The notes under the pieces are model-generated. The model ran no database searches and was not told the DNA's origin. It worked only from the letters and a program-made list of their open reading frames with translations. From NCBI GenBank assembly GCA_003024785.1, contig PUQB01000361.1, positions 97,673-161,672 of the forward strand: a stretch of DNA of 64,000 nt, in the 5' to 3' direction. The DNA is from Selaginella tamariscina (lineage: Eukaryota > Streptophyta > Lycopodiopsida > Selaginellales > Selaginellaceae). A program made the translations under genes and the position numbers. Shown here in pieces: positions 1 to 53,975 of this stretch; the stretch's first letter is position 1; each line of letters begins with the position of its first letter.

Positions 1-367
1 ATACATGATGCAGGATAACGAATACAGGATACAGGATACAGGATATGTCTATAGGATATACCTACAGGATATGCCTATAGGATATGTTACATGATATACC
101 TACAAGATAAGGTTCACCATTTTTAGCTCATGACTAGATTAGACTCATGACCAGATTAGCTCTTGGAGTTGTGAGCATAAAAGCTCCGACCTAATTGTTG
201 TACAATCAGTTACTATTAACACCAATCTTTCTACGATTAATCTTGTCTTGTTCTTGTCTCTCCTTGCTTCATATTCTCTCTTTGTCTTGTTCCTAATTCT
301 TGTCCTGCTCCTAATCCTTGTCTTGCTCTTGAGTCAAGCTTCTTTGTTCTTGGATCGTGGCCTGACA
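1..367 (+). mobile_element. Chromovirus LTR, 5' end cut by the window edge
   Basis: This matches the LTR of the chromovirus described at 9129-15295. It has the CAGGATA-rich left part, the TATA-like GCATAAAAGC segment near 177, the CAGTTACTAT site and the TCTTGTCC-rich right part, and it ends in CTGACA at 367. The sequence after 367 is not chromovirus internal sequence and lacks its primer site, so this is probably a solo LTR or the 3' LTR of an element lying to the left. The left end is outside the window, so a target duplication cannot be tested. Confidence 0.85.
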
Positions 368-7830: not shown

Positions 7831-8130
7831 GTTATCACGACCCAATACAGAATACAGGATATGCCTACAGGATAAGGGACATTATTTTTAGCTCATAACT
7901 AAATTAGCTCGTAGAGTATATTTTTAGCTCATGCCTAGATTAGCTCTTGGAGTTGTGAGCATAAAAGCTCCGACCTAATTGTTCTACAATCAATTACTAT
8001 CAACACCAGTCATTCTATGATCATTCTTGTATTGTTCTTGTCTTACTCTTTGCCTCATGGTCTCGTCTTGTTCCTAATTATTGTCCTGCTCTTGAGTCAA
8101 ACCTTCTTGCTTTTGGATCGTGACTTGACA
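7831..8130 (+). repeat. 5' LTR of the older chromovirus
   Basis: About 300 bases, shorter than the 545-base LTR of the young copy because parts of the CAGGATA and TCCTG arrays are missing. The GCATAAAAGC TATA-like motif is at about 7968-7977, the CAATTACTATCAA site at 7991-8003, and the terminal GACTTGACA at 8122-8130. Confidence 0.8.
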
Positions 8131-8132
8131 AT

Positions 8133-8145
8133 TTGATAATAATTG
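8133..8145 (+). other. Self-complementary primer site of the older chromovirus
   Basis: TTGATAATAATTG begins two bases after the LTR end at 8130. Its reverse complement differs at one base from CAATTACTATCAA at 7991-8003 in the LTR. The same arrangement is exact in the young copy (14736-14748 with 15013-15025). Confidence 0.65.
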
Positions 8146-9123: not shown

Positions 9124-9128
9124 ATTAA
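9124..9128. repeat. Target site duplication ATTAA, left
   Basis: ATTAA immediately flanks the young chromovirus and is repeated at 15296-15300. Five bases is the usual length for Ty3-type integrases. Confidence 0.9.
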
Positions 9129-9670
9129 TGTCAAGCCACGATCCAGGAACCAGGAAGCGAGTAGGATTCCGGGAACAGGAAGGCTTGACTCAGGAACAGG
9201 ACCGAGAGCAGGACAGGAACCAGGAACAGGAACAGGACGGATCCAGGAGCAGGACAGGATCAGGATAGGATCCGGGAACAAGACAGGAACTAGACAGGAT
9301 CCAAGAGCAAGACAGGAGCAGGAGGCAAAGAGTAAGACAAGAACAAGACAAGAGCAAGGAACAAGAATAATCGTAGAATGACTGGTGTTGATAGTAACTG
9401 ATTGTACAACAATTAGGTCGGAGCTTTTATGCTCACAACTCCAAGCTAATCTAGTCATGAGTCTAATCTAGTCATGAGCTAAGAATAGTGTCCCTTATCC
9501 TCTAGGCATATCCTGTAGCATATCCTCTAGGCATATCCTATAGGAATATCCTATAGGTATATCCTGTAGGAATATCCTGCAGGCATATCCTGTAACCCGT
9601 ATCCTGTATCCAAAATCCTGCATCCTGTATCCTGTATCCGGAAACCTGTAACCTGCATCGGGTTGTGACA
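9129..9670 (-). repeat. 3' LTR of the young chromovirus (542 bases)
   Basis: On the minus strand it begins TGTCACAACCCGATGCAGG at 9670 and ends GTGGCTTGACA at 9129, so the TG...CA termini are present. The first half (about 9480-9660) is built of CAGGATA/CAGGATATGCCTA units and the last half (about 9140-9360) of TCCTG-rich units. Confidence 0.92.
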
Positions 9671-9681
9671 GCACCTCCTCC

Positions 9682-11240
9682 CTAAGGACGAGTTCCACGA
9701 GTCTTAGGACCTGGTTTAGCAGGATAATGCCGATGGAAGGCAGCAACTTTGGAAGAAGCATGGAGTAAGTTGCATGCAGGTTCCCAAGTGCGATCGGTAG
9801 GCAAATAACCTTTCCAATCCACCAAGTATTGAAGTTGGCGGCGATGAAGACGAGAATCAAGGATGGCTGCAACTTCGTACTCAGGTTCACCAGCAATGAC
9901 CACAGGAGGGGGAGGAGAAGAAGCACGACCAGGAAGAGAAGAAGGATGATACGGCTCCAGCAAGGAGGTGTGAAACACAGGATGAAGTTTCACCGTGGAT
10001 GGTAACTCGAGTCGGAAAGCTACAGGATTTACCTCCGCCACGATCCTGTAAGGGCCCAATCGTTGAAAATCCAACTTAGAAGAAGGCCTGTTGGTGCGAA
10101 TGTGTCGACGAAGAAGCCACACAAGATCACCAATCTTGTATGCAGGTGCCGGCTGACGGTGAGCATCAGCATGATGCTTGTACCGTTCCTGTGCCTGCTG
10201 AAGATGAACCTGGAGATCATCCTGTACCTGACGAAGATGCTGGAGACGATCCTGTACTGCAGGAGCGGAAGAAGGAGAAGCAAGAGAAGCAAAGTCAAAA
10301 CGTGGATGGTGGCCTGTAAGAGCAAAGAAAGGTGTCTGGCCTGTAGATGCGTGAATGGAGTTGTTGTAGGCAAACTCCGCCATAGGAAGAAGGTCCAACC
10401 AATTATCCTGTTGGTAACTGATGAAGCAACGAAGATATTGCTCCAAGGTCTGGATTGTGCGTTCTGACTGTCCATCAGTTTGCGGGTGATATCTTGAAGA
10501 AAGATCCGCTTTAACTGTAGACTCCGAAGAAGCTCTTGCCAAAACTTGGACATGAATTGTGGACCTCGATCGGAAACAATGCTCTCAGGAAGACCATGAT
10601 GTCGGAACACCTCACGGATCACCAATTCGGCAGTTGTCTGACCTATAGCTGTCTTGTTGCAGGGTAGGAAATGAGCCTGCTTGGTGAAACGGTCAACCAC
10701 CACAAGAACTGCATCGAATCCACGAGAAGGAGGAAGATCTATGAGGAAATCCATAGAAATGGATCTCCAAGGAGTAGAAGGAATAGGAAGAGGACGAAGA
10801 AGACCAGAAGGTGCATGACGAGGCATCTTCGACCTGTTGCAGGTGTCACAACTCCGTACAAACCTTTCCACAAAACCTCGCAACCCAGGCCACCAATAGT
10901 TGCGAGTCACCAACTCAACTGTCTTGGCCACACCAAAATGTCCTGTAGCCGGGGTATCATGACAATCCTGTACCACACGAGTCCTGCAAACACCAACAGG
11001 AACGTACAGGAGACCTTCCCGGTACAGGAGTCCATCCTGTATGGTGAACAGGTTGTAGTCTGGACGGGAACTGGAGGAAGAGGAACTTGCAACGTCAGGA
11101 TGAATGTGTGAGAACACATTCTTTGCCAAGTCGTCTGTACCAACTGCGAACGGACGTCTTGTAGGAGAGTTGAATTTGCTGGAGCCTGATGAACCTGCAG
11201 TGCCGCAAGCCGGAATCGATCAGGACCCAACAACACTTGC
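9682..11240 (-). pseudogene. Chromovirus integrase with C-terminal chromodomain
   Basis: The minus-strand integrase end of pol. The zinc-binding part (H-x-G and C-D-T-C) is at about 10840-10960, and the catalytic core has aspartate in S-M-D-F-L-I-D near 10755 and in S-D-R-G-P-Q-F near 10560. The GPY/F-like segment is at about 10010-10070, followed by a chromodomain at about 9720-9870 (Y-L-V-D-W-K-G-Y, then R-T-W-E-P). In chromoviruses the chromodomain is thought to guide integration to heterochromatin marks such as methylated histone H3K9. The region is not one open frame, so it is scored as broken. Confidence 0.85.
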
Positions 11241-11249
11241 CTTTGACAG

Positions 11250-12563
11250 TCAAATGCAGGATCGCCCGGGCTTGGTGCAAGGTAGAGCGCCTAGACAATG
11301 CGTCCGCCTTGCCATTCCGAAAACCGGGCCTGTAGACGATGACGAAGTCAAAACGTGATAGGAACTCCGCCCACCTAGCCTGTCGCCGACTGAGAACTCG
11401 AGCCGTTTGAAAGTACTCCAGGTTCTTGTGATCCGTAAGAACTTGTACAGGATGTGCAGCACCTTCCAGGAAATGCCGCCACTCCTCAAACGAATCCACA
11501 ATGGCCTTGAGTTCCTTGTCATGAATCTCGTAATTGATCTCCGCCGACAGGAATTTACGAGAGTGAAAAGCTACAGGATGAAGCAATGTGTCCTCTCCAA
11601 CTTGCGATAGGACGGATCCTATTGCAAAATCCGAGGCATCTGCTTCAACGAAGAAAGGACGAGAAGGATCAGGATGTGCTAAAATCGGAGCTGTCGTGAA
11701 GGTGTCCTTGAGTGTTGTGAATGCTGTTCCGCCTTGTCGGACCAAGAGAAAACCTCTGTGCGCTTGGTGAGTTCCGTGAGTGGAAGTACACGCTTGGAGA
11801 AGTCCTGTATGAATCGCCTGTAGAAGTTTGCAAAGCCAAGGAAACATTGTACATCTCGTACAGACTTGGGCCTCTCCCACTCCACGATGGTCTTCACCTT
11901 GTGCATGTCCATGGAAACGCCAGCAGGAGAGACGATGTAGCCCAAGAACTCCACAGAATCCCTATCGAAAAAACACTTCTCCAACTTCGCATACAAGCCA
12001 TGCTCACGAAGCCGCTGTAGAACCAACCGTACATGCTTGTCATGTGCCGCCTGGTCCTTGGAGAAAATCAAAATGTCGTCGAGGTAGATCACCACAAACT
12101 GGTCCAAGAAGTCACGAAAGATGTCGTTCACCATGTGTTGGAACACGGCTGGGGCATTGGTAAGGCCGAAAGGCATCACCGTGTACTCGAAGTGTCCATA
12201 CCTTGTACGAAAGGCAGTCTTCCACTCATCACCGGGACGAATCCGTACAAGGTTGTAGCCCCTCGTAAGTCGATCTTCGTGAACACCTTTGCTCCTCGCA
12301 GCCGATCGAGAAGTTCTAGGATCAATGGCAACGGGTACCGATTCCGAATGGTAGCTTGATTCAAACCCCTGTAGTCCACAACCAAACGTAAGCTCCCATC
12401 CTTCTTCTTGACAAAGAAGATTGGCGCTCCTGCAGGGGACTTTGAGTGACGAATGAAGCCAGATGCCAAGTTGTCCTCGATGTACTGGCGAAGAACCTCC
12501 AACTCTGTGGGTGACAATGCGTAAATCGGTCCGAACAGTGGGTCTTTCCTTCTGCAAGATCAA
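11250..12563 (-). pseudogene. Chromovirus reverse transcriptase and RNase H
   Basis: The minus-strand RT palm is clearly readable: [17 protein letters not shown] near 12430, the V-V-D-Y-R-G-L-N-Q block near 12370, and the catalytic Y-L-D-D-I-L-I-F block near 12080. RNase H follows with V-E-A-D-A-S-D near 11640 and the L-T-D-H-K-N-L-E block near 11420. The family match is strong, but the region lies in more than one frame. Confidence 0.85.
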
Positions 12564-12569
12564 TGGACA

Positions 12570-13663
12570 GTCGTAGGACCTGTGAACAGGAAGAACTGTA
12601 GCCTTGTGCTTGTCAAAAACGTCCTTAAAGTCGTGGTACTTGGATGGTAGAGAAGAAGGAGGAGAAGGAGAAGAGTAGGCGAAGGAGATTGAAAAACAGG
12701 AGAGTCAGACACAGGAAAGGTAGAAGAGGACGTAGGAGTTACTTGAAAGGCAAAAAGGTGGAAAGGAGCAGGATCAGTGGTAAGTTCATGCATGGTAGTG
12801 GTAAGAACTCGGAGAGGAGCAGGAGGGAGCTGTGATTGAAAAAGAGGAAGGATCTTGGGGGGTGGAACAGAGGCAGAGTAACAAAAGGAGGCAGGATTGG
12901 GAGAAACCTGTGTGGATGTTGACGAGTGTACAGGATTGAAGGAATCTTGTACAAAAGTCCGTGGTTGCACAGGAGTGAGGGAAGCCTGTGAGTGTGCTGA
13001 CGAACCAACAGGAGGTGGATCCTGTTGAGGAACCTTCGACACTGATACAGGATTGGAAGAACCCTGTACAGGAATCCGCAAACTTACAGGAGTGGAGAGA
13101 ACCTGCGGATGTGCTGAGGAACTGACATGAGGTGAATCCTGTCGAGGAAGAGTCTTCAACACTGGTACAGGAACAGGCACGGTCAATCCTGTAGCTTGTA
13201 CTGCCTCAGACACCAAGGATGTATCCTGCACGCAGGAAGGTACAGGATTGATCCTGGCTGCTGGAGAGGTAAACGTGAGCGTCCTAGACCTCCAGTCGAT
13301 CTGCGGATTTGCAACAACGAACCATGGCATGCCAAAAATGATGAGAGTCGACCGAGTCTTGATCAAGTTGAAGGAAATCGAACAGTTGAATGCACCATGA
13401 CTGCAAGAAGAGGTGTGGTAGCGTGGGTAACTGCGCCAGAAGTAACAACGACCATCGGCCACCTCTACAGGAACTGCACACTTCAACTTCACCACCGGAA
13501 TGCCATGCTGAGCTGCAAAAGTGTCATCCATGAAACATGCATTTGCACCAGTGTCTAACAGGGCAAACTCCTTGAGCTCTCGATTATTGAGGCGAATGTG
13601 TACAGGAAACTTGAGTGATGGAATGGTATGAGCAGCACCAATGGAGCCTGCACCTACGTCCAA
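12570..13663 (-). pseudogene. Chromovirus protease and proline/serine-rich linker
   Basis: The retropepsin motif L-L-D-T-G-A-N-A-C-F-M-D-D lies near 13550, with V-P-V-E-V-A-D-G near 13460. A long Pro/Ser/Val-rich low-complexity linker then leads toward RT. The linker carries many CAGGA/TCCTG words, as elsewhere in this element. Confidence 0.8.
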
Positions 13664-13674
13664 CTTCGCGGCTC

Positions 13675-14652
13675 CTAGGCGAAGTGGACATTGAAGTTTT
13701 CCGACTGAACTTCAGCTTCGGCTTCACGCGCTTTGAACTTCCTGGCTTTATTAGGACATTCCGCCACCTTGTGTCCTGCTGCACCACAATACAAGCATAG
13801 GTTCTCACCCCGTCGACGTTGCTTCTCAGCAGTTGAAAGTGGGCCACGCTTGGAATTGCTAACCTCCATAGGAACTGCTCCAGAAGGTGTCGTAGGAACA
13901 TGTGCTACGGCTACAGGATTGGCTGGCAGGAACTGCTGACGGAATTTTTCCTGACGGCTCTCGAACAAACGGTTGTCGCAGCGAACGGCCTGTTGCATGA
14001 TCTCCGCTAACGTTTGAGCATCCGGTAACGTAAGGAGAAGGTCCTTCACGTCGTCCCTCAGCCCAAAACGGAAATGTTCGATCAATGCAGTCTCGTCCCA
14101 TGGAATGTTCGTGCACAATTGCTGGAATTCGGATGCATAAACGGAAGCTGGTCTGGATCCTTGTGTGAGCCTCCGTAACTTTGTGCATGCAGAACGGTAC
14201 TTATCAGGATCTCCAAAGCAGGCTTCAAAGGCAGCCACGAAACCTTCAAAGTCTTCCATCAATGGGTCGTCACGCTCCAGCAAGGGAGCAACCCAAGCTC
14301 GTGGAGATCCACTTAGTAAGGATGCCAAAAGGCCAACCTTTTGTGCATCCGTCAAGTAGCGGCGTGGTTGCATGCGGATCAAGAGCCGGATCTGATTCAG
14401 GAAACCTTGGAAATCGGCACAGTTGCCACTGAACTTCTCTGGCATGCTGATCTTCGGCTCCGGAGAAAAGTTCGATGAAGAAGGAACCACCGATGCCTGA
14501 GAGAGAGCCTGCGCAGCAGCCTTGGAGGATGCATCAGCAGCTGCATGTGCCGCATGGGTGGAGCCTTGCAAATCGGTGACCACTTGGCGCAAAGTGGCCA
14601 GCTCATGGAGCAACATTTGGTGCTCGCGTTGGAAGTGCTCAAAATCAGCCAT
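13675..14652 (-). CDS. Chromovirus gag with CCHC zinc knuckle
   Basis: About 326 residues from the ATG at 14652. The frame is open further upstream into the LTR, but the ATG after the primer site fits gag better. The N-terminus (M-A-D-F-E-H-F-Q-R-E-H-Q) is matched in the older copy at 8232. The capsid-like region runs to about residue 230 (F-S-G-N-C-A-D-F-Q-G-F-L-N-Q-I and later Y-A-S-E-F-Q-Q-L-C). A CCHC knuckle is near residue 295 (C-L-Y-C-G-A-A-G-H-K-V-A-E-C). Gag forms the virus-like particle and the knuckle binds the element RNA. A separate scrap of the same gag lies at 43605-43975. Confidence 0.88.
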   Translation of the reverse strand: MADFEHFQREHQMLLHELATLRQVVTDLQGSTHAAHAAADASSKAAAQALSQASVVPSSSNFSPEPKISMPEKFSGNCADFQGFLNQIRLLIRMQPRRYLTDAQKVGLLASLLSGSPRAWVAPLLERDDPLMEDFEGFVAAFEACFGDPDKYRSACTKLRRLTQGSRPASVYASEFQQLCTNIPWDETALIEHFRFGLRDDVKDLLLTLPDAQTLAEIMQQAVRCDNRLFESRQEKFRQQFLPANPVAVAHVPTTPSGAVPMEVSNSKRGPLSTAEKQRRRGENLCLYCGAAGHKVAECPNKARKFKAREAEAEVQSENFNVHFA

Positions 14653-14735
14653 GATCTTATGAAAGAAAGAAAAGAAAAACGAAGGAAAAGAATCAAGGAA
14701 AAAAAAAGTAGCTAGGAAACGAAGAGCTATGAAAG

Positions 14736-14748
14736 CAGTTACTATCAA
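14736..14748 (-). other. Self-priming primer site of the young chromovirus
   Basis: On the minus strand, TTGATAGTAACTG starts two bases after the 5' LTR. It does not begin with TGG and does not resemble an initiator-Met tRNA site. It is the exact reverse complement of CAGTTACTATCAA in the LTR (15013-15025 in the 5' LTR), which is where the element's RNA is predicted to begin. This is the arrangement of Tf1-like elements, which prime minus-strand synthesis with their own RNA 5' end. Confidence 0.75.
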
Positions 14749-14750
14749 AC

Positions 14751-15295
14751 TGTCAAGCCACGATCCAGAACCAGGAAGCGAGTAGGATTCCGGGAACAGG
14801 AAGGCTTGACTCAGGAACAGGACCAGAGCAGGACAGGAACCAGGAACAGGAACAGGAACAGGACGGATCCAGGAGCAGGACAGGATCAGGATAGGATCCG
14901 GGAACAAGACAGAACTAGACAGGATCCAAGAGCAAGACAGGAGCAGGAGGCAAAGAGTAAGACAAGAACAAGACAAGAGCAAGGAACAAGAATAATCGTA
15001 GAATGACTGGTGTTGATAGTAACTGATTGTACAACAATTAGGTCGGAGCTTTTATGCTCACAACTCCAAGCTAATCTAGTCATGAGTCTAATCTAGTCAT
15101 GAGCTAAGAATAGTGTCCCTTATCCTCTAGGCATATCCTGTAGCATATCCTCTAGGCATATCCTATAGGAATATCCTATAGGTATATCCTGTAGGAATAT
15201 CCTGCAGGCATATCCTGTAACCCGTATCCTGTATCCGAAATCCTGCATCCTGTATCCTGTATCCGGAAACCTGTAACCTGCATCGGGTTGTGACA
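14751..15295 (-). repeat. 5' LTR of the young chromovirus (545 bases)
   Basis: TG...CA termini. The TATA-like ATAAAA is at 15050-15055 on the minus strand, and the predicted RNA start is near 15025-15027. That gives U3 of about 270 bases and R-U5 of about 275. It differs from the 3' LTR at only a few positions. Confidence 0.92.
15013..15025 (-). promoter_or_regulatory. Predicted RNA start and self-primer sequence in the LTR
   Basis: CAGTTACTATCAA on the minus strand begins about 30 bases after the start of the ATAAAA motif (15050-15055), the normal TATA-to-start distance. It is the exact complement of the site just inside the 5' LTR (14736-14748). The start position is inferred, not measured. 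Confidence 0.6.
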
Positions 15296-15300
15296 ATTAA
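15296..15300. repeat. Target site duplication ATTAA, right
   Basis: The second copy of the five-base duplication that flanks the young chromovirus. The gag of the older copy continues directly after it. Confidence 0.9.
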
Positions 15301-43500: not shown

Positions 43501-43604
43501 CTTAATTCAGATGTTCGCCACCTTAAGAGGGATCCAGGATGCAATGTGCCAATAGGTGAAACCTCTGTCACAACTACACCCACAAAGTTGGACCCTAGTT
43601 TCTC

Positions 43605-43975
43605 TTCAAAACCAGCCACAAAACCTTCAAAGTCTTCCATCAATGGGTCGTCACTCCAGCAAGGGGGCAACCCAAGCCCGTGGAGATCCACTTAGTAAGG
43701 ATGCCAAAAGGCCAACCTTTTGTGCATTAGTTGAGTAGCGGCGTGGTTGCATGCGGATCAAGAGCCAAATCTGATTCAGGAAACCTTGGAAATCAGCATG
43801 ATTGCCACTGAAACTTTTCTGGCATGCTGACCTTTGGCTCCAAGAAAAGTTCGATGAAAAGGAAACCACCGATGCCTAGAGAGAGCCTGTGCAGCAGCCT
43901 TGGAGGATGCATCAACAGTTGCATGCGCTGCGTTGGTGAAACCTTACAGGTCGGTGACCACTTGGCGCAAAGTCA
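43605..43975 (-). mobile_element. Chromovirus gag scrap
   Basis: About 370 bases matching the gag at 14236-14600 on the same strand (D-F-Q-G-F-L-N-Q-I, L-L-A-S-L-L-S-G-S-P-R-A-W-V-A-P-L-L-E and D-P-L-M-E-D-F-E-G-F-V-A). No LTR is attached. It ends in CTTGGCGCAAAGT, where Tat-like gag begins at once. Confidence 0.85.
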
Positions 43976-46900
43976 CAAGCAAAGGGAGACCTACAGAGCG
44001 GTCACAAGGTAGGAGAATCTAGCAATGACTCTTGCTCAGTTAGGATACACCACGCGTAGGGATAAAATTGTAAAGTATGTAATGTCCATGGATCCCACAA
44101 CACAAATGATTGTTACCAGCTAACCAAGCTCCTAAGCAGCACGCCACCCTAGATTGGCCCCTGGGTCGTTGAGCGACAGGAGGTGGATCACCTAGGAGAC
44201 CAACGATATGGGGGCCGCGGTGGTGGCCAACCCCACCGTAGATCGTGATCAGGAGACCGAAACCAGAGGTCGCGCTCCTGGGAGCGCCAACAAAACCGAC
44301 CAAGGTACAACAACAGAAACAGATGGTCGGAATGCTGGGAGTTGATCTGCACGCTATGCAGTGGATGCCATCCACTATACCGATGCTCTTGGATCGTGAT
44401 GCTCAAACCCATGCTGGAAGCGCATGTACCAAAGGCCACATGGGTGGTCGAGGGACCAGCCCCGGCCACAACAACACTAGGTCCCACACCACAGGCCCAC
44501 CAAGTAAAGATGTCACCCCGAGCTGCAATGTGGGGAAATCACGAGGTCACAAGCCCAACAGACAGATGACCAGTTGACTTGGAGGAGGAAGACAATGAAG
44601 AGTCCAGTGAGGAGGAAGTGGTAGCCAAACTCGAAAAACCAGGTCTGTAAGAGTGAAGACACGCTAAGGTGGAAGTGGCTGCAGAACATGTGAGATTGGC
44701 ATAGGGTGCAGAGGCCAAGGGCATGATGGGGATGCACGAGACCCTCGTGGGAAGATGTGAGAAACCCAGGTGTCGGTAACCTTAGGAGAGTTGCTATGGT
44801 TATCCCCAAGGCTTTATGAAGTCCTCACCAGGGAACTACATGGCCCACAGTCGTGGCCCCAAGGGTCGCAACAATAGTGGTAGACTTTGTGGACGACGTA
44901 CCGGCCATACCCGTCCAAGTGGCAGGCCGCACGTCCACAACTTGATCATAGATGGGGGATCAAGCATAAATATCATGTCCACAAAACTCCATCAGGAGCT
45001 GGGGATGCCGCCCCCGAAGCCCTCACCCTTCCTCATACGTATGGCAAACCAAGCCAAGGTGGCCCCTAAGGGCATCATGAGGAAGGTAAGCATCAGGATC
45101 CAGAGCATTAAGTTCCTGATAAACATGATCATCCTCGACATGCACACAAAAGGAGGGTTTGACTTACTCATGGGCCAGCCGTGCTCCGGGGCGCAAGGGT
45201 ACAACACGATTGGGAGAAGTAGGAGATTCGGTTCCCCGTCAAGGAGGGGGTCATATCCATTACTGCAAAACAAGTCTCGGTGCCACCATCGAAATCCTGA
45301 CCCCAGGAATACCACCTCCCAGACTGGGGAGAGGGACTGGATGATGAGGAAGAAGCAACCATCTTAGCATGCTTGCCAGAGCTATTCATCATAGGAGAGG
45401 TGGATCCTCGACAGGAAGTACAAGAGTTGGCTGCCACGTACCTAATGACTTAGCTAGAAATCAGAGTAGACACCTCAGAAGCTCAAATCCTGAGGTGGCC
45501 CATTCTGTGTAAAGAAATGCGAAGTGTAGCTCCACCGGCCCAGGAAGAGTACTGTAGCAGAAGCAGTGGTCAAGCAGGTCAACATAGGCACCGATGAAGA
45601 CCCCGACTAGTAAATATTAATGCTCACATCGGAGTAGAGCTAAGAGAGTAGATTGCCAACTACCTCTGTAGATTATAGGGAAGTATTTTCCTGGACCTAC
45701 CACGACCTAAGGGGAGTACTGCTGGAGTTGTGCTAGCACCGAATTAAACTAAAACCCGACACCTTACCCAACCAGCAACAACGTTACCGTATCAACCCAA
45801 ACTACGCCCGAAAAGCTAAATAGGAGATTGACAAGTGGCTCAAAGCGGACTTTGTCTACCCCATCGAGAACCCAGAATGGCTGTCACCAATGTTATTGTA
45901 CCAAAGAAGGACGGCCGGCTAAGAATCTGCATAGATTATCGACGACTGAATGCCACCGCGGAGAAGGACCCGTTCCCCATCCCATTCACAGAGGCCATCC
46001 TAGAAGATGTAGTGGGCCATGAGATGTACTTGTTCATGAATGGCTTCAGTGGATACAACCAGGTGACGATTGCAACGGAAGACTAAGCCAAAACTGCATT
46101 CATCATGGACTGGGGAGCCTACGCCTTCAGAGTTTTGTCGTTGGACTTTGCAATACTCCAACCACGTTTCAGAGGTTGGTCCAGCGGGTATTCTCGGACA
46201 ACCTCACAGGTTTTGTCTGAGCATTCCTGGATGATTTCACAGCTTATGGACCAGTAGAGGACCATGTGACAAATCTGGAATGGGTGTTCTGGCGCTGCCA
46301 GGAATATGGGATATCTCTTAACCCCTCAAAGTGCGTATTTGGCATGACCGCGGGAAGTTGCTAGGGCACATCGTTTCCAAGGAAGGCATCACTGTGGACC
46401 TAGGTTCATTACAAGCATTGGTTGAAATGCCACCTCCACAGAATGTCACGAAACTCCGAAGATTCCTGGGAAAGCAGGGTTTTACCGCAAGTTTATTCAG
46501 AAGTACCAACCGATGACCGAATTACTACCAGGGAGGCACCATATGAATGGACTGCCCACCAACAGGTGGCTTTCGAGGACATAAAGCGCCAGCTGGTGGA
46601 AGTGCCTATCCTCATCCCACCGGATTGGAATCGACAGTTCCACTTACAAACGGATGGCTCAAGCGTAGCGGCGGGTGCGGTCATGTCCCAGGAGGACGAC
46701 AAAAGGATGCTCCGACCCATAGCATATGGAAGTCGACTCATGATGCCGGTTGAACGCAACTACTCGGCGACCGACAAAGAATGCCTGGTGGTCATCTACG
46801 GGGTATCTAAGTTTTGCCATTGCCTTCTGGGCAACCACTTCATACTGATCATAGATCACCACGCTCTGCTGTACCTCATGAACAAACCGCAGCTCACTGG

Positions 46901-48703
46901 GCGGCCAGCTCAATGGATACTCTTGCAGGAGTTTGAGTTTACCATAGTCCATAAAGCAGGTAAGCTGCACGTATCATCGGACCTCTTCTCCCGAATAACG
47001 AGCGGTGAACTAGCAGAAGCCGCCAACTTGGTCGACATACCATACACTGACCTCTTCGGGACAACTGTTGAACAAGGCACCTTACCATGAACCACCAAGT
47101 TGACGACCGGCCTGGACATCCCAGCGTGGCAATAGCCAATACGGTGCTACCTCACCAACGAGTTAAACAGCCTTTCCGGCACATCGGTGACACATAGACA
47201 AAGCCTTGTCCAAAGGTGCTTACCGTTCTAGCTGATCAGGGATCAGCTATACAAGCGAGGGAGGGATGACATACTCTGGAGATGCCCACTAACTTGGGAA
47301 ATTCCCGAGATTGTTGAGGCAGCTCACGTAGGACCGGGGCAAGACACTTTGGGGGAGACAAAACGGCCAGAAAAATCCTACAAATTGGACTCTGGTGGCC
47401 AACAATCTTTCGGGATGCCACCAAGGTAGCAAGGAGTTGTACTGATTGTCAACGAATAGGCAAACCCATGGTAGGCCAAGGCATGGAGTACCACCTTTCA
47501 GCAAAAATGGCGGCATTTGAGAAGTGGGGCCTAGATTTTGTGGGGCCTATCAACCCAAGGGCCCACACGACACACTCCAGGTACATCGTAGTGGCAACGA
47601 ACTACATCACAAAATGGGTAGAAGCAAAGGCACTCAAGGAGGCAACAACAAGATAGACATTAAGGTTCATCTATACAAACATTCTAACACGGTTCAGTTG
47701 CCCACTAGAGATGGTGTCAAACCAAGGGAGCCACTTCATCAATAAGACTATCCGAGAATTGGTCAATGCGTTTGTCATCAAGCATTGCATGTCAACAACC
47801 TACTATTGCAGGGGAATGGACAGGCCGAGTCCACAAACAAGGTACTAGTCACCATCTTGAGGAAGCTTTGCCATAGGGAACCCAGGCGATGGGAAGAAAT
47901 GCTACCATCGGTGTTATGGGCATACCGGACAACATTCAAAACATCAACATGAACGACACCTTTCCAGCTGGCCTATGGTCTGAAGGCCATCATGCCATGG
48001 GAGTTCACCATACCCAACTTACGGATGAGCCTGGACCACATGATCATGGACGAACCAACGGTTACACGGAAAAGACTGGAGCAGCTGGAACAACTAGACG
48101 AAGTACGATTCCTAGCACAGTTGACGAGAGAAAACCATCAACAGCAGACCAAACAAGCTAGGGATAGGAAAAAGAAACTCTGAGAATATAAGCCAGGACA
48201 GTGCCTATGGTGATTCAAGAAACCACAAACATTTCGGAAAGGCAAGTTCTGGCAAGGATGGAAAGGACCATATGTGGTGCTAAAAACCTTCGACAATGGT
48301 ACGGTTCTACTGAGGGCCAACGGGTAGCCGTTACAACAGAAAGTTAACACCTCGAACCATACATTCACCTGATAAGAACCCCGTTCGAGGGAAACGGAAG
48401 AAAGAGGTAAACCTCACGGACCTTCAGGGTGAAGGCATGGCCAGAGTAGTGGTGTTAAGAACCAAGGAAAGGGACACTCAACGAGAGAGCGGGGACCCTA
48501 GTCCCACACGAATGGCCAGCTCACAGGGTCACATGGTTCACGAGAGTGGACCACACGCGTGAGCATGTAGAACGGGGCAATAATGGCAGGCGGCACCATT
48601 AATGCCCTGATTATGGCATGTGGGAGGACGCGCCATCATATCTAGCGAGGTAGCCCACCACATAGGCACCATCTTTAGAAGGATAACAGGGGTGAGCTAG
48701 GGC

Positions 48704-53454: not shown

Positions 53455-53975
53455 TGTCAACCATGATCCAGGAACCAGGAAGCGAGTAGGATTCCGGGAA
53501 CAGGAAGGCTTGACTCAGGAACAGGACCGAGAGCAGGACATGAACCAGGAACAGGAACAGGAACAGGACGGATCCAGGAGCAGGACAGGATCAGGATAGG
53601 ATCCGGGAACAAGACAGGAACTAGACAGGATCCAAGAGCAAGACAGGAGCAGGAGGCAAAGAGTAAGACAAGAGCAAGGAACAAGAATAATCGTAGAATG
53701 ACTGGTGTTGATAGTAACTAATTGTACAACAATTAGGTCGGAGCTTTTATGCTCACAACTCCAAGCTAATCTAGTCATGAGTCTAATCTAGCATGAGCTA
53801 AGAATAGTGTCCCTTATCCTCTAGGCATATCCTGTAGCATATCCTCTAGGCATATCCTATAGGTATATATGTAGGAATATCCTGCAGGCATATCCTGTAA
53901 CCGGTATCCTATATCCGAAATCCTGCATCCTGTATCCTGTATCCGGAAACCTGTAACCTGCATCGGGTTGTGACA
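53455..53975 (-). mobile_element. Solo chromovirus LTR, TSD TAATG
   Basis: 521 bases, TG...CA, very similar to the young element's LTR. TAATG flanks it on both sides (53450-53454 and 53976-53980), and LARD sequence continues on each side. It is the product of insertion followed by LTR-LTR recombination. Confidence 0.92.

What the first reader, a model, noticed from the sequence alone, without database searches (positions are those of the whole stretch)
14736..15055. Chromovirus with a self-priming (Tf1-like) layout in a plant genome
In the young chromovirus the 13 bases TTGATAGTAACTG stand two bases after the 5' LTR, where a tRNA-complementary site is expected. They are the exact complement of CAGTTACTATCAA in the LTR, about 30 bases below the ATAAAA motif, i.e. 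at the predicted RNA start. Tf1 of fission yeast and sushi-type elements of fish and fungi are known to prime reverse transcription with the 5' end of their own RNA. Plant Ty3 elements are usually described as tRNA-primed, and the LARD and copia elements in this same window have ordinary initiator-Met sites. The match is direct observation; the mechanism is inference.
Basis: partly seen in the sequence, partly recalled or inferred. Interest (0 to 1): 0.88.

Follow-up and report, generated by a model that had tools for sequence, protein, structure and literature searches.

The report
Self-priming plant Tcn1-like retrotransposon
A jumping gene in a plant genome carries a 13-letter site that matches the start of its own RNA instead of a host tRNA, so it probably starts copying itself with its own RNA; this is known for relatives in yeast and predicted for some in mosses and clubmosses, and here related fern elements show the two matching pieces changing together.

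Summary
On the minus strand a 6.2-kb chromovirus (9129-15295, duplication TTAAT) has TTGATAGTAACTG two bases after its 5' LTR, the exact complement of CAGTTACTATCAA in the LTR, 30 bases below ATAAAA. No LTR shuffle of 20,000 gave 13 matches; no other internal place reaches 11. No TGG lies between LTR and gag ATG, so no tRNA 3' end fits. Of 29 scorable genomic pairs (the window's own included), 24 are exact, 4 are damaged in the LTR word only, and 1 has changed on both sides. Relatives in a bin with fern DNA have the same layout with other words (ACTCTTGATCAA, AAGGCGAACAA, AAGGTGAACAA), each exactly matched by its own post-LTR site. Best reading: Tf1-type self-priming. But the element looks Tcn1-like, and a 2019 survey already predicts self-priming for most plant Tcn1 elements (mosses, clubmosses). 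It is a new member of a known kind. Added: covariation between families, CAC(C/A)AGT conserved behind the primer, and fern carriers, which the papers I found do not report. RNA starts, primer cleavage and host species were not shown; no named Tcn1 sequence was compared.

The parts
14751..15295 (-). 5' LTR (TGTCACAACCCG...GTGGCTTGACA), 545 bp
   Evidence: differs from the 3' LTR by 1 substitution and 4 short indels
15050..15055 (-). ATAAAA, TATA-like box
   Evidence: starts 30 bases before the self-primer word
15009..15067 (-). LTR block from GGAGTTGTGAGC through the TATA box and primer to CACC, 4 substitutions in all among 6 LTR copies that otherwise are 69-99.8% alike; 3 of the 4 lie in the primer word of old or solo LTRs
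15013..15025 (-). self-primer word CAGTTACTATCAA in the 5' LTR, predicted RNA 5' end
14749..14750 (-). two-base spacer GT between LTR and PBS
14736..14748 (-). primer binding site TTGATAGTAACTG, exact complement of the self-primer
13675..14652 (-). gag ORF, 325 aa (Retrotrans_gag, Ty3_capsid)
   Evidence: ATG read
12560..13663 (-). pol piece with aspartyl protease (other frame than gag)
11679..12563 (-). pol piece with reverse transcriptase (RVT_1)
11095..11880 (-). pol piece with RNase H (RT_RNaseH, RT_RNaseH_2)
10029..11129 (-). pol piece with integrase zinc finger and core
9682..10542 (-). pol piece: integrase core end, SH3_Tf2-1, chromodomain (about 9727-9879) with aromatic residues Y, W, Y at the cage positions
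9671..9683 (-). polypurine tract AGGGAGGAGGTGC
   Evidence: read directly
9129..9670 (-). 3' LTR
9388..9400 (-). self-primer word in the 3' LTR
9124..9128 (-). target site duplication TTAAT, 3' side
15296..15300 (-). target site duplication TTAAT, 5' side
7831..8145 (+). older related copy: 5' LTR (to 8130), primer word CAATTACTATCAA 7991-8003, PBS TTGATAATAATTG 8133-8145 (12 of 13), then gag start
   Evidence: 83% identity to the young element
53455..53975 (-). solo LTR of the family with TSD TAATG; primer word TAGTTACTATCAA
55004..55592 (+). older LTR of the family (start approximate); primer word intact
1..367 (+). older LTR of the family cut by the window edge; primer word CAGTTACTATTAA

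Best explanation
A Tcn1-like (Tf1/sushi-group) chromovirus that most likely primes its own reverse transcription. Its RNA is expected to begin at or within a few bases of CAGTTACTATCAA. This 5' end folds back on the complementary site two bases inside the LTR border and is cut behind ...CAA, before the conserved CACCAGT. The freed 3' end would then be extended into the LTR end. Shown: the anatomy, its exactness, its presence in genomic copies and its covariation in relatives. Inferred: the RNA start, the cut (by the element's RNase H, as in Tf1) and the priming step. If the next copy's PBS is copied from the RNA primer, the two words would be kept alike automatically.
For: 13/13 complementarity, never reached in 20,000 shuffles and unique in the internal region; no TGG within the first 99 bases after the LTR. 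TATA box 30 bases upstream; the TATA-to-primer block has 4 substitutions in 6 LTR copies. 24 of 29 scorable genomic 5' LTR/PBS pairs exact, the window's own copy included; one pair (L066 plus) shows a T-A to A-T double change. Fern-bin relatives: 6 distinct contigs with the same layout, 3 different word pairs, all exact, 2-base spacer, LTR end ...ACA (TGACA in 5 of 6), CAC(C/A)AGT behind the primer. Matrix: 11 of 11 within families, 4-6 between unrelated families, 10 between near ones. Folds pair primer with PBS at mean probability 0.92-0.97 in 7 of 8 leaders. A more distant element of the same bin (L017) holds TGGTATCAGAGC upstream of its pol.
Against: No transcript or cDNA end is known. In 4 of the 5 variant pairs only the LTR word changed. 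Across those 30 rows the primer (0.941) and PBS (0.962) are only a little more alike than the whole LTR (0.913), and 3 of the 4 substitutions in the LTR block fall in the primer word. The old window copy (12 of 13) no longer pairs in the fold; with the PBS shuffled, the lowest of 50 energies equals or beats the real one in L003, L007 and the old copy. L005 keeps only about 7 pairs (by eye). In the window element the helix of the LTR end is not better than shuffles (29 of 200 as low) and the third 'pretzel' helix was not found (198 of 200). The pol frame is broken, so this copy is probably not autonomous. TGGTATCAGAGC also occurs in L019, L037 and L047; L037 holds a relative inside the clade, but the site lies 1.4 kb past its integrase and was not assigned. 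SM-Tcn1 of Selaginella was reported to lack both kinds of site (PMC2864245, passages).
Confidence: 0.88

Rival explanations
1. The post-LTR site binds a host tRNA 3' end or a half tRNA, and the match to the LTR is a by-product.
For: tRNA-Met is found in most plant chromoviruses (PMC6317226, passages). CTATCAA has the general form of an anticodon loop (my own remark, not tested).
Against: No TGG, hence no complement of CCA, between the LTR end and the gag ATG. The site changes its sequence freely between relatives while following the LTR, which a fixed tRNA does not explain. Host tRNA genes were not searched.
Confidence: 0.04
2. The pairing serves the RNA leader (packaging, dimerisation or translation control) and reverse transcription is primed otherwise.
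For: The pairing encloses the whole U5 and ends 83 bases before the gag ATG; no priming was observed.
Against: The position (2 bases inside the LTR border) is that of a primer binding site; no tRNA-type site was found there (TGG test only); the related Tf1 is described as self-primed (PMC10085805, passages).
Confidence: 0.07
3. Chance or a repeat artefact of a low-complexity LTR.
For: The LTR is rich in CCTG-like repeats; 92 internal 22-base windows have 10-base matches; the bare layout scan of the whole window gives many hits.
Against: 0 of 20,000 shuffles; unique at 11 or more in the internal region; recurs in relatives with different words.
Confidence: 0.01

Closest known systems
Tf1 (fission yeast) and the Tf1/sushi group
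   Same: Self-primer at the (here predicted) RNA 5' end, PBS just inside the LTR, LTR ending in CA, chromodomain, Tf2-1-type SH3 domain.
   Different: Other primer words; a 2-base spacer, while Tf1 is recalled to have its PBS next to the LTR; gag and pol in different frames, while Tf1 is recalled as one frame; the three-helix leader is not established here.
Plant Tcn1 clade of REXdb (Neumann et al. 2019, PMC6317226, passages read)
   Same: Chromodomain with aromatic cage; predicted self-priming; no tRNA site.
   Different: That survey reports the clade only from mosses and clubmosses; here the tree clade includes a bin with fern DNA and a Ceratopteris protein. The cage also occurs in part of Chlamyvir and Galadriel. 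No REXdb sequence could be compared, and its supplementary PBS tables could not be read.
SM-Tcn1 of Selaginella moellendorffii (PMC2864245, passages read)
   Same: gag 323 aa versus 325 aa here, gag and pol apart, chromodomain, T-rich leader after the LTR.
   Different: Its authors found neither a tRNA nor a self-priming site; here the self-priming site is exact.

Membership tests
Chromovirus (Ty3/Gypsy) | gag-PR-RT-RH-IN order with C-terminal chromodomain | tested here: met
   Pfam on six pieces
Plant Tcn1 clade (Tf1/sushi group) | Chromodomain with aromatic cage Y/W/Y | tested here: met
   Sequence: EYEV...DWKGY, read by eye; cage residues as described in PMC3350952. Not unique to Tcn1
Plant Tcn1 clade (Tf1/sushi group) | Groups with named Tcn1 references in a pol tree | not tested
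   No named Tcn1 sequence was at hand; the tree joins it with the fern bin and Ceratopteris (95/89, midpoint root)
Plant Tcn1 clade (Tf1/sushi group) | No tRNA-complementary PBS | tested here: met
   No TGG before the gag ATG; host tRNAs themselves not searched
Tf1-type self-priming | PBS complementary to the RNA 5' end | tested here: inconclusive
   Complementarity 13/13 and TATA 30 bases upstream are met; that the RNA starts there is predicted, not measured
Tf1-type self-priming | Covariation of primer and PBS | tested here: met
   within the host family only one double change was seen against 4 one-sided ones
Tf1-type self-priming | Three-helix 'pretzel' leader | tested here: inconclusive
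   LTR-end helix at most 6 of 200 shuffles in 5 of 6 fern-bin elements (L006 74), 29 of 200 in the window element; third helix only in L042 (12 of 200) of 7 tested, the others 104-198
Tf1-type self-priming | RNA cut behind the primer by RNase H | not testable with these tools
   needs RNA and cDNA ends

The most novel reading that the evidence does not exclude
Self-primed Tcn1-like chromoviruses are an old, diverse lineage of non-seed plants that includes ferns. Their primer word turns over freely (at least four word pairs seen), because each round of reverse transcription copies the PBS from the RNA primer. The constant parts are the TATA distance, the CAA end, the CAC(C/A)AGT behind the cut and the 2-base spacer, which would be the recognition code of the primer-making cut.
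Probability: 0.55. Interest if true: 0.6.

Novelty: new member of a known kind. Interest (0 to 1): 0.42.

Why it matters
It gives sequence-level support for self-priming in plants that goes beyond one complementary pair: unrelated primer words, each matched in its own element. It extends the predicted mechanism to ferns, and it points to a short conserved context (CAC(C/A)AGT, 2-base spacer) that could be the signal for the primer-making cut and can be tested in RNA and cDNA data.

Tried and rejected
Viral contigs: the RT piece, a 20-base PBS word and the IN-chromodomain alignment gave no relative. One F-box protein of the window found no homologue at E 0.001. A Rfam scan and a tRNA scan of the window were empty. 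Flanks of the window (L055-L060, 60 kb fetched, one stretch nearly all N) hold no further copy. Host species: not established; 300.7 Mb in 1,391 contigs reminds me of published lycophyte or moss assemblies (recall), but the paper searches did not settle it. Two requests on the host genome did not complete: matK, and further copies by the old element. The third pretzel helix was looked for and mostly not found.

One search (53 loci, both strands) gave 16 rows. Eight are the layout, from 6 distinct contigs (L025 and L031 repeat L003 and L006). Eight were set aside: L005 minus (again as L027), L012 twice, L017, L021 twice have no CAC(C/A)AG behind the first word; the second L007 row is the inverted repeat in front of the primer. 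Many of the other loci do not hold the 5' end of an element, so the misses are not evidence of absence.

Limits of the counts: one search scored the best 40 of 2,025 candidates and gave 30 loci, so the copies are young ones, and the window's own copy is among them (L061). One search asked for a nearly intact PBS; one of its 30 rows was an empty artefact, L069 (changed LTR end) was not among them, and some loci give two rows. LTR copies B5, C, D and E were cut a few bases off their true ends.

Full report
What is there. On the minus strand lies an LTR retrotransposon of 6,167 bases (9129-15295) with LTRs of 545 and 542 bases, TTAAT on both sides and a polypurine tract before the 3' LTR. The LTRs differ by one substitution and four short indels, so it is young. 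Pfam finds gag, protease, reverse transcriptase, RNase H, integrase, the Tf2-1-type SH3 domain and a chromodomain. gag is an open frame of 325 codons; pol is split into five consecutive open pieces in changing frames, so this copy is probably not autonomous, or the assembly has indel errors.

The observation. TTGATAGTAACTG stands at 14736-14748 (minus), two bases after ...GCTTGACA, and is the exact complement of 15013-15025 in the LTR; ATAAAA begins 30 bases upstream of the LTR word. With the LTR shuffled 20,000 times, the 22 bases after the LTR never found 13 matches (12 twice). No other place in the 5,080-base internal region reaches 11. The first TGG after the LTR belongs to the gag start (ATGG), so no tRNA 3' end can pair there. 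A control that tells against the bare layout: scanning the whole window for a TATA-like word, a complementary pair and a CA end gives many other, mostly AT-rich hits, one of 13 bases.

Upkeep. Six LTR copies in the window are 69-99.8% alike where letters align. The block from GGAGTTGTGAGC through the TATA box and the primer word to CACC shows only 4 substitutions in all; 3 of these lie in the primer word of old or solo LTRs. In the host genome a first look with the PBS stretch gave 2,025 candidates, of which the best 40 were scored and 30 fetched. Of 30 aligned 5' LTR/PBS rows one was an empty artefact. Of 29, 24 have both words intact (the window's own among them), 4 have a changed or damaged LTR word with an intact PBS, and 1 (L066, plus strand) has CAGTTACAATCAA with TTGATTGTAACTC. 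There the T-A pair became A-T on both sides, and one end pair was lost. Mean identity was 0.941 for the primer, 0.962 for the PBS, 0.913 for the whole LTR, so in these young copies the words are not strikingly better kept. The old window copy shows one G-C to A-T double change and one mismatch, which could also be ordinary decay.

Relatives. A scan of prokaryote genome contigs found 23 loci. The closest lie in a 'Trichormus' bin: seven at 51-59% over IN-chromodomain, one short end piece at 78%, one at 37%. The bin holds a matK whose best named hits are leptosporangiate ferns (52-54%), among them the water ferns Marsilea and Pilularia. Trichormus azollae is a species of that genus; that it lives in Azolla is general knowledge. 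So the bin carries fern DNA, probably Azolla; the run itself could not be traced (one search shows only the study number of an Azolla paper). That every retroelement contig of the bin is fern DNA is inferred. In six distinct contigs of this bin the same layout appears (53 loci scanned, duplicates included). L001 has ACTCTTGATCAA with TTGATCAAGAGT. L002, L003, L006 and L007 have AAGGCGAACAA with TTGTTCGCCTT. L042 has AAGGTGAACAA with TTGTTCACCTT. Each has a TATA box 32-33 bases upstream, a 2-base spacer, and CAC(C/A)AGT behind the primer word; five of six LTRs end TGACA and L006 ends TTAACA. L005 is degenerate. Primer and PBS agree in 11 of 11 positions within a family, 4-6 between unrelated families, 10 between near ones. 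A more distant element of the bin (L017, 37%) has TGGTATCAGAGC about 4.6 kb upstream of its integrase match; that it follows an LTR there was not verified. The same word in L019, L037 and L047 was not assigned to an element.

Placement. In a tree of 28 integrase pieces the window element joins fern-bin elements and a Ceratopteris protein in a set of 12 rows with support 95/89; a Xenopus protein and L017 lie outside. The root is a midpoint and no named Tcn1 reference was at hand. The chromodomain has the Y/W/Y cage. [quoted passage not shown] the clade was seen only in moss and clubmoss. PMC2864245 (passages) found Tcn1-like elements by PCR only in Selaginella among 26 ferns and horsetails and 10 lycophytes, and no priming site in SM-Tcn1. 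PMC10085805 (passages) describes the Tf1 three-helix leader and notes Tf1/sushi elements in non-seed plants.

Leader structure. From the primer word to 60 bases past the PBS the predicted fold pairs primer and PBS with mean probability 0.92-0.97 in 7 of 8 leaders; the old window copy does not pair. With PBS letters shuffled the mean energy is weaker in all 8, but the lowest of 50 shuffles equals or beats the real one in L003, L007 and the old copy. In 5 of 6 fern-bin elements the LTR end also pairs with the sequence starting about four bases after the primer (at most 6 of 200 shuffles as low; L006 74 of 200), which resembles a second helix of the Tf1 leader. In the window element the best partner of the LTR end is GTCAAGCC some 200 bases after the primer, and it is not better than shuffles (29 of 200). 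The third helix was not found except perhaps in L042 (12 of 200).

Verdict. The claim of an unexpected plant case is weakened, since a Tcn1-like plant element is where self-priming is expected from the 2019 survey. New here, as far as the ten paper searches show: primer/PBS covariation between families of non-seed plants, the conserved context behind the primer, and fern carriers. None of these searches asked for covariation by that word, and the survey's supplementary PBS tables could not be read, so part of this may be visible there. Not shown: RNA start, cut, priming, host species.

Noticed in passing
L002 1-260, L003 2700-2865, L006 1550-1720, L007 1-175, L042 (minus) near 702-712: In the AAGGCGAACAA-type fern-bin elements a PBS-like copy (GTTCGCCTT) stands between the TATA box and the primer word, forming an inverted repeat with it; in L042 a similar repeat (GTTCACCT) has changed along with the primer.
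   Followed up: no
window 9682-13663: The pol frame of the young element is broken in several places while its LTRs are nearly identical; non-autonomous copying or assembly indels could explain it.
   Followed up: no
L001-L007, L017, L020, L054 (bin of a Trichormus MAG): A cyanobacterial MAG in a public species set carries many retrotransposon contigs and a fern plastid contig with matK (one internal TGA) followed by an ndhB-like frame.
   Followed up: partly
window 43604-43973: A gag remnant 90% like that of the element, without LTR or PBS, next to pol-like pieces of another gypsy element (44816-47090).
   Followed up: no
window about 36926 (minus): TGGTATCGGAGCC, a near initiator-Met type site, the best such candidate seen in the window.
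   Followed up: partly
L075 and L083: Two loci of the host genome hold two LTR-PBS junctions of the family within 3 kb.
   Followed up: no
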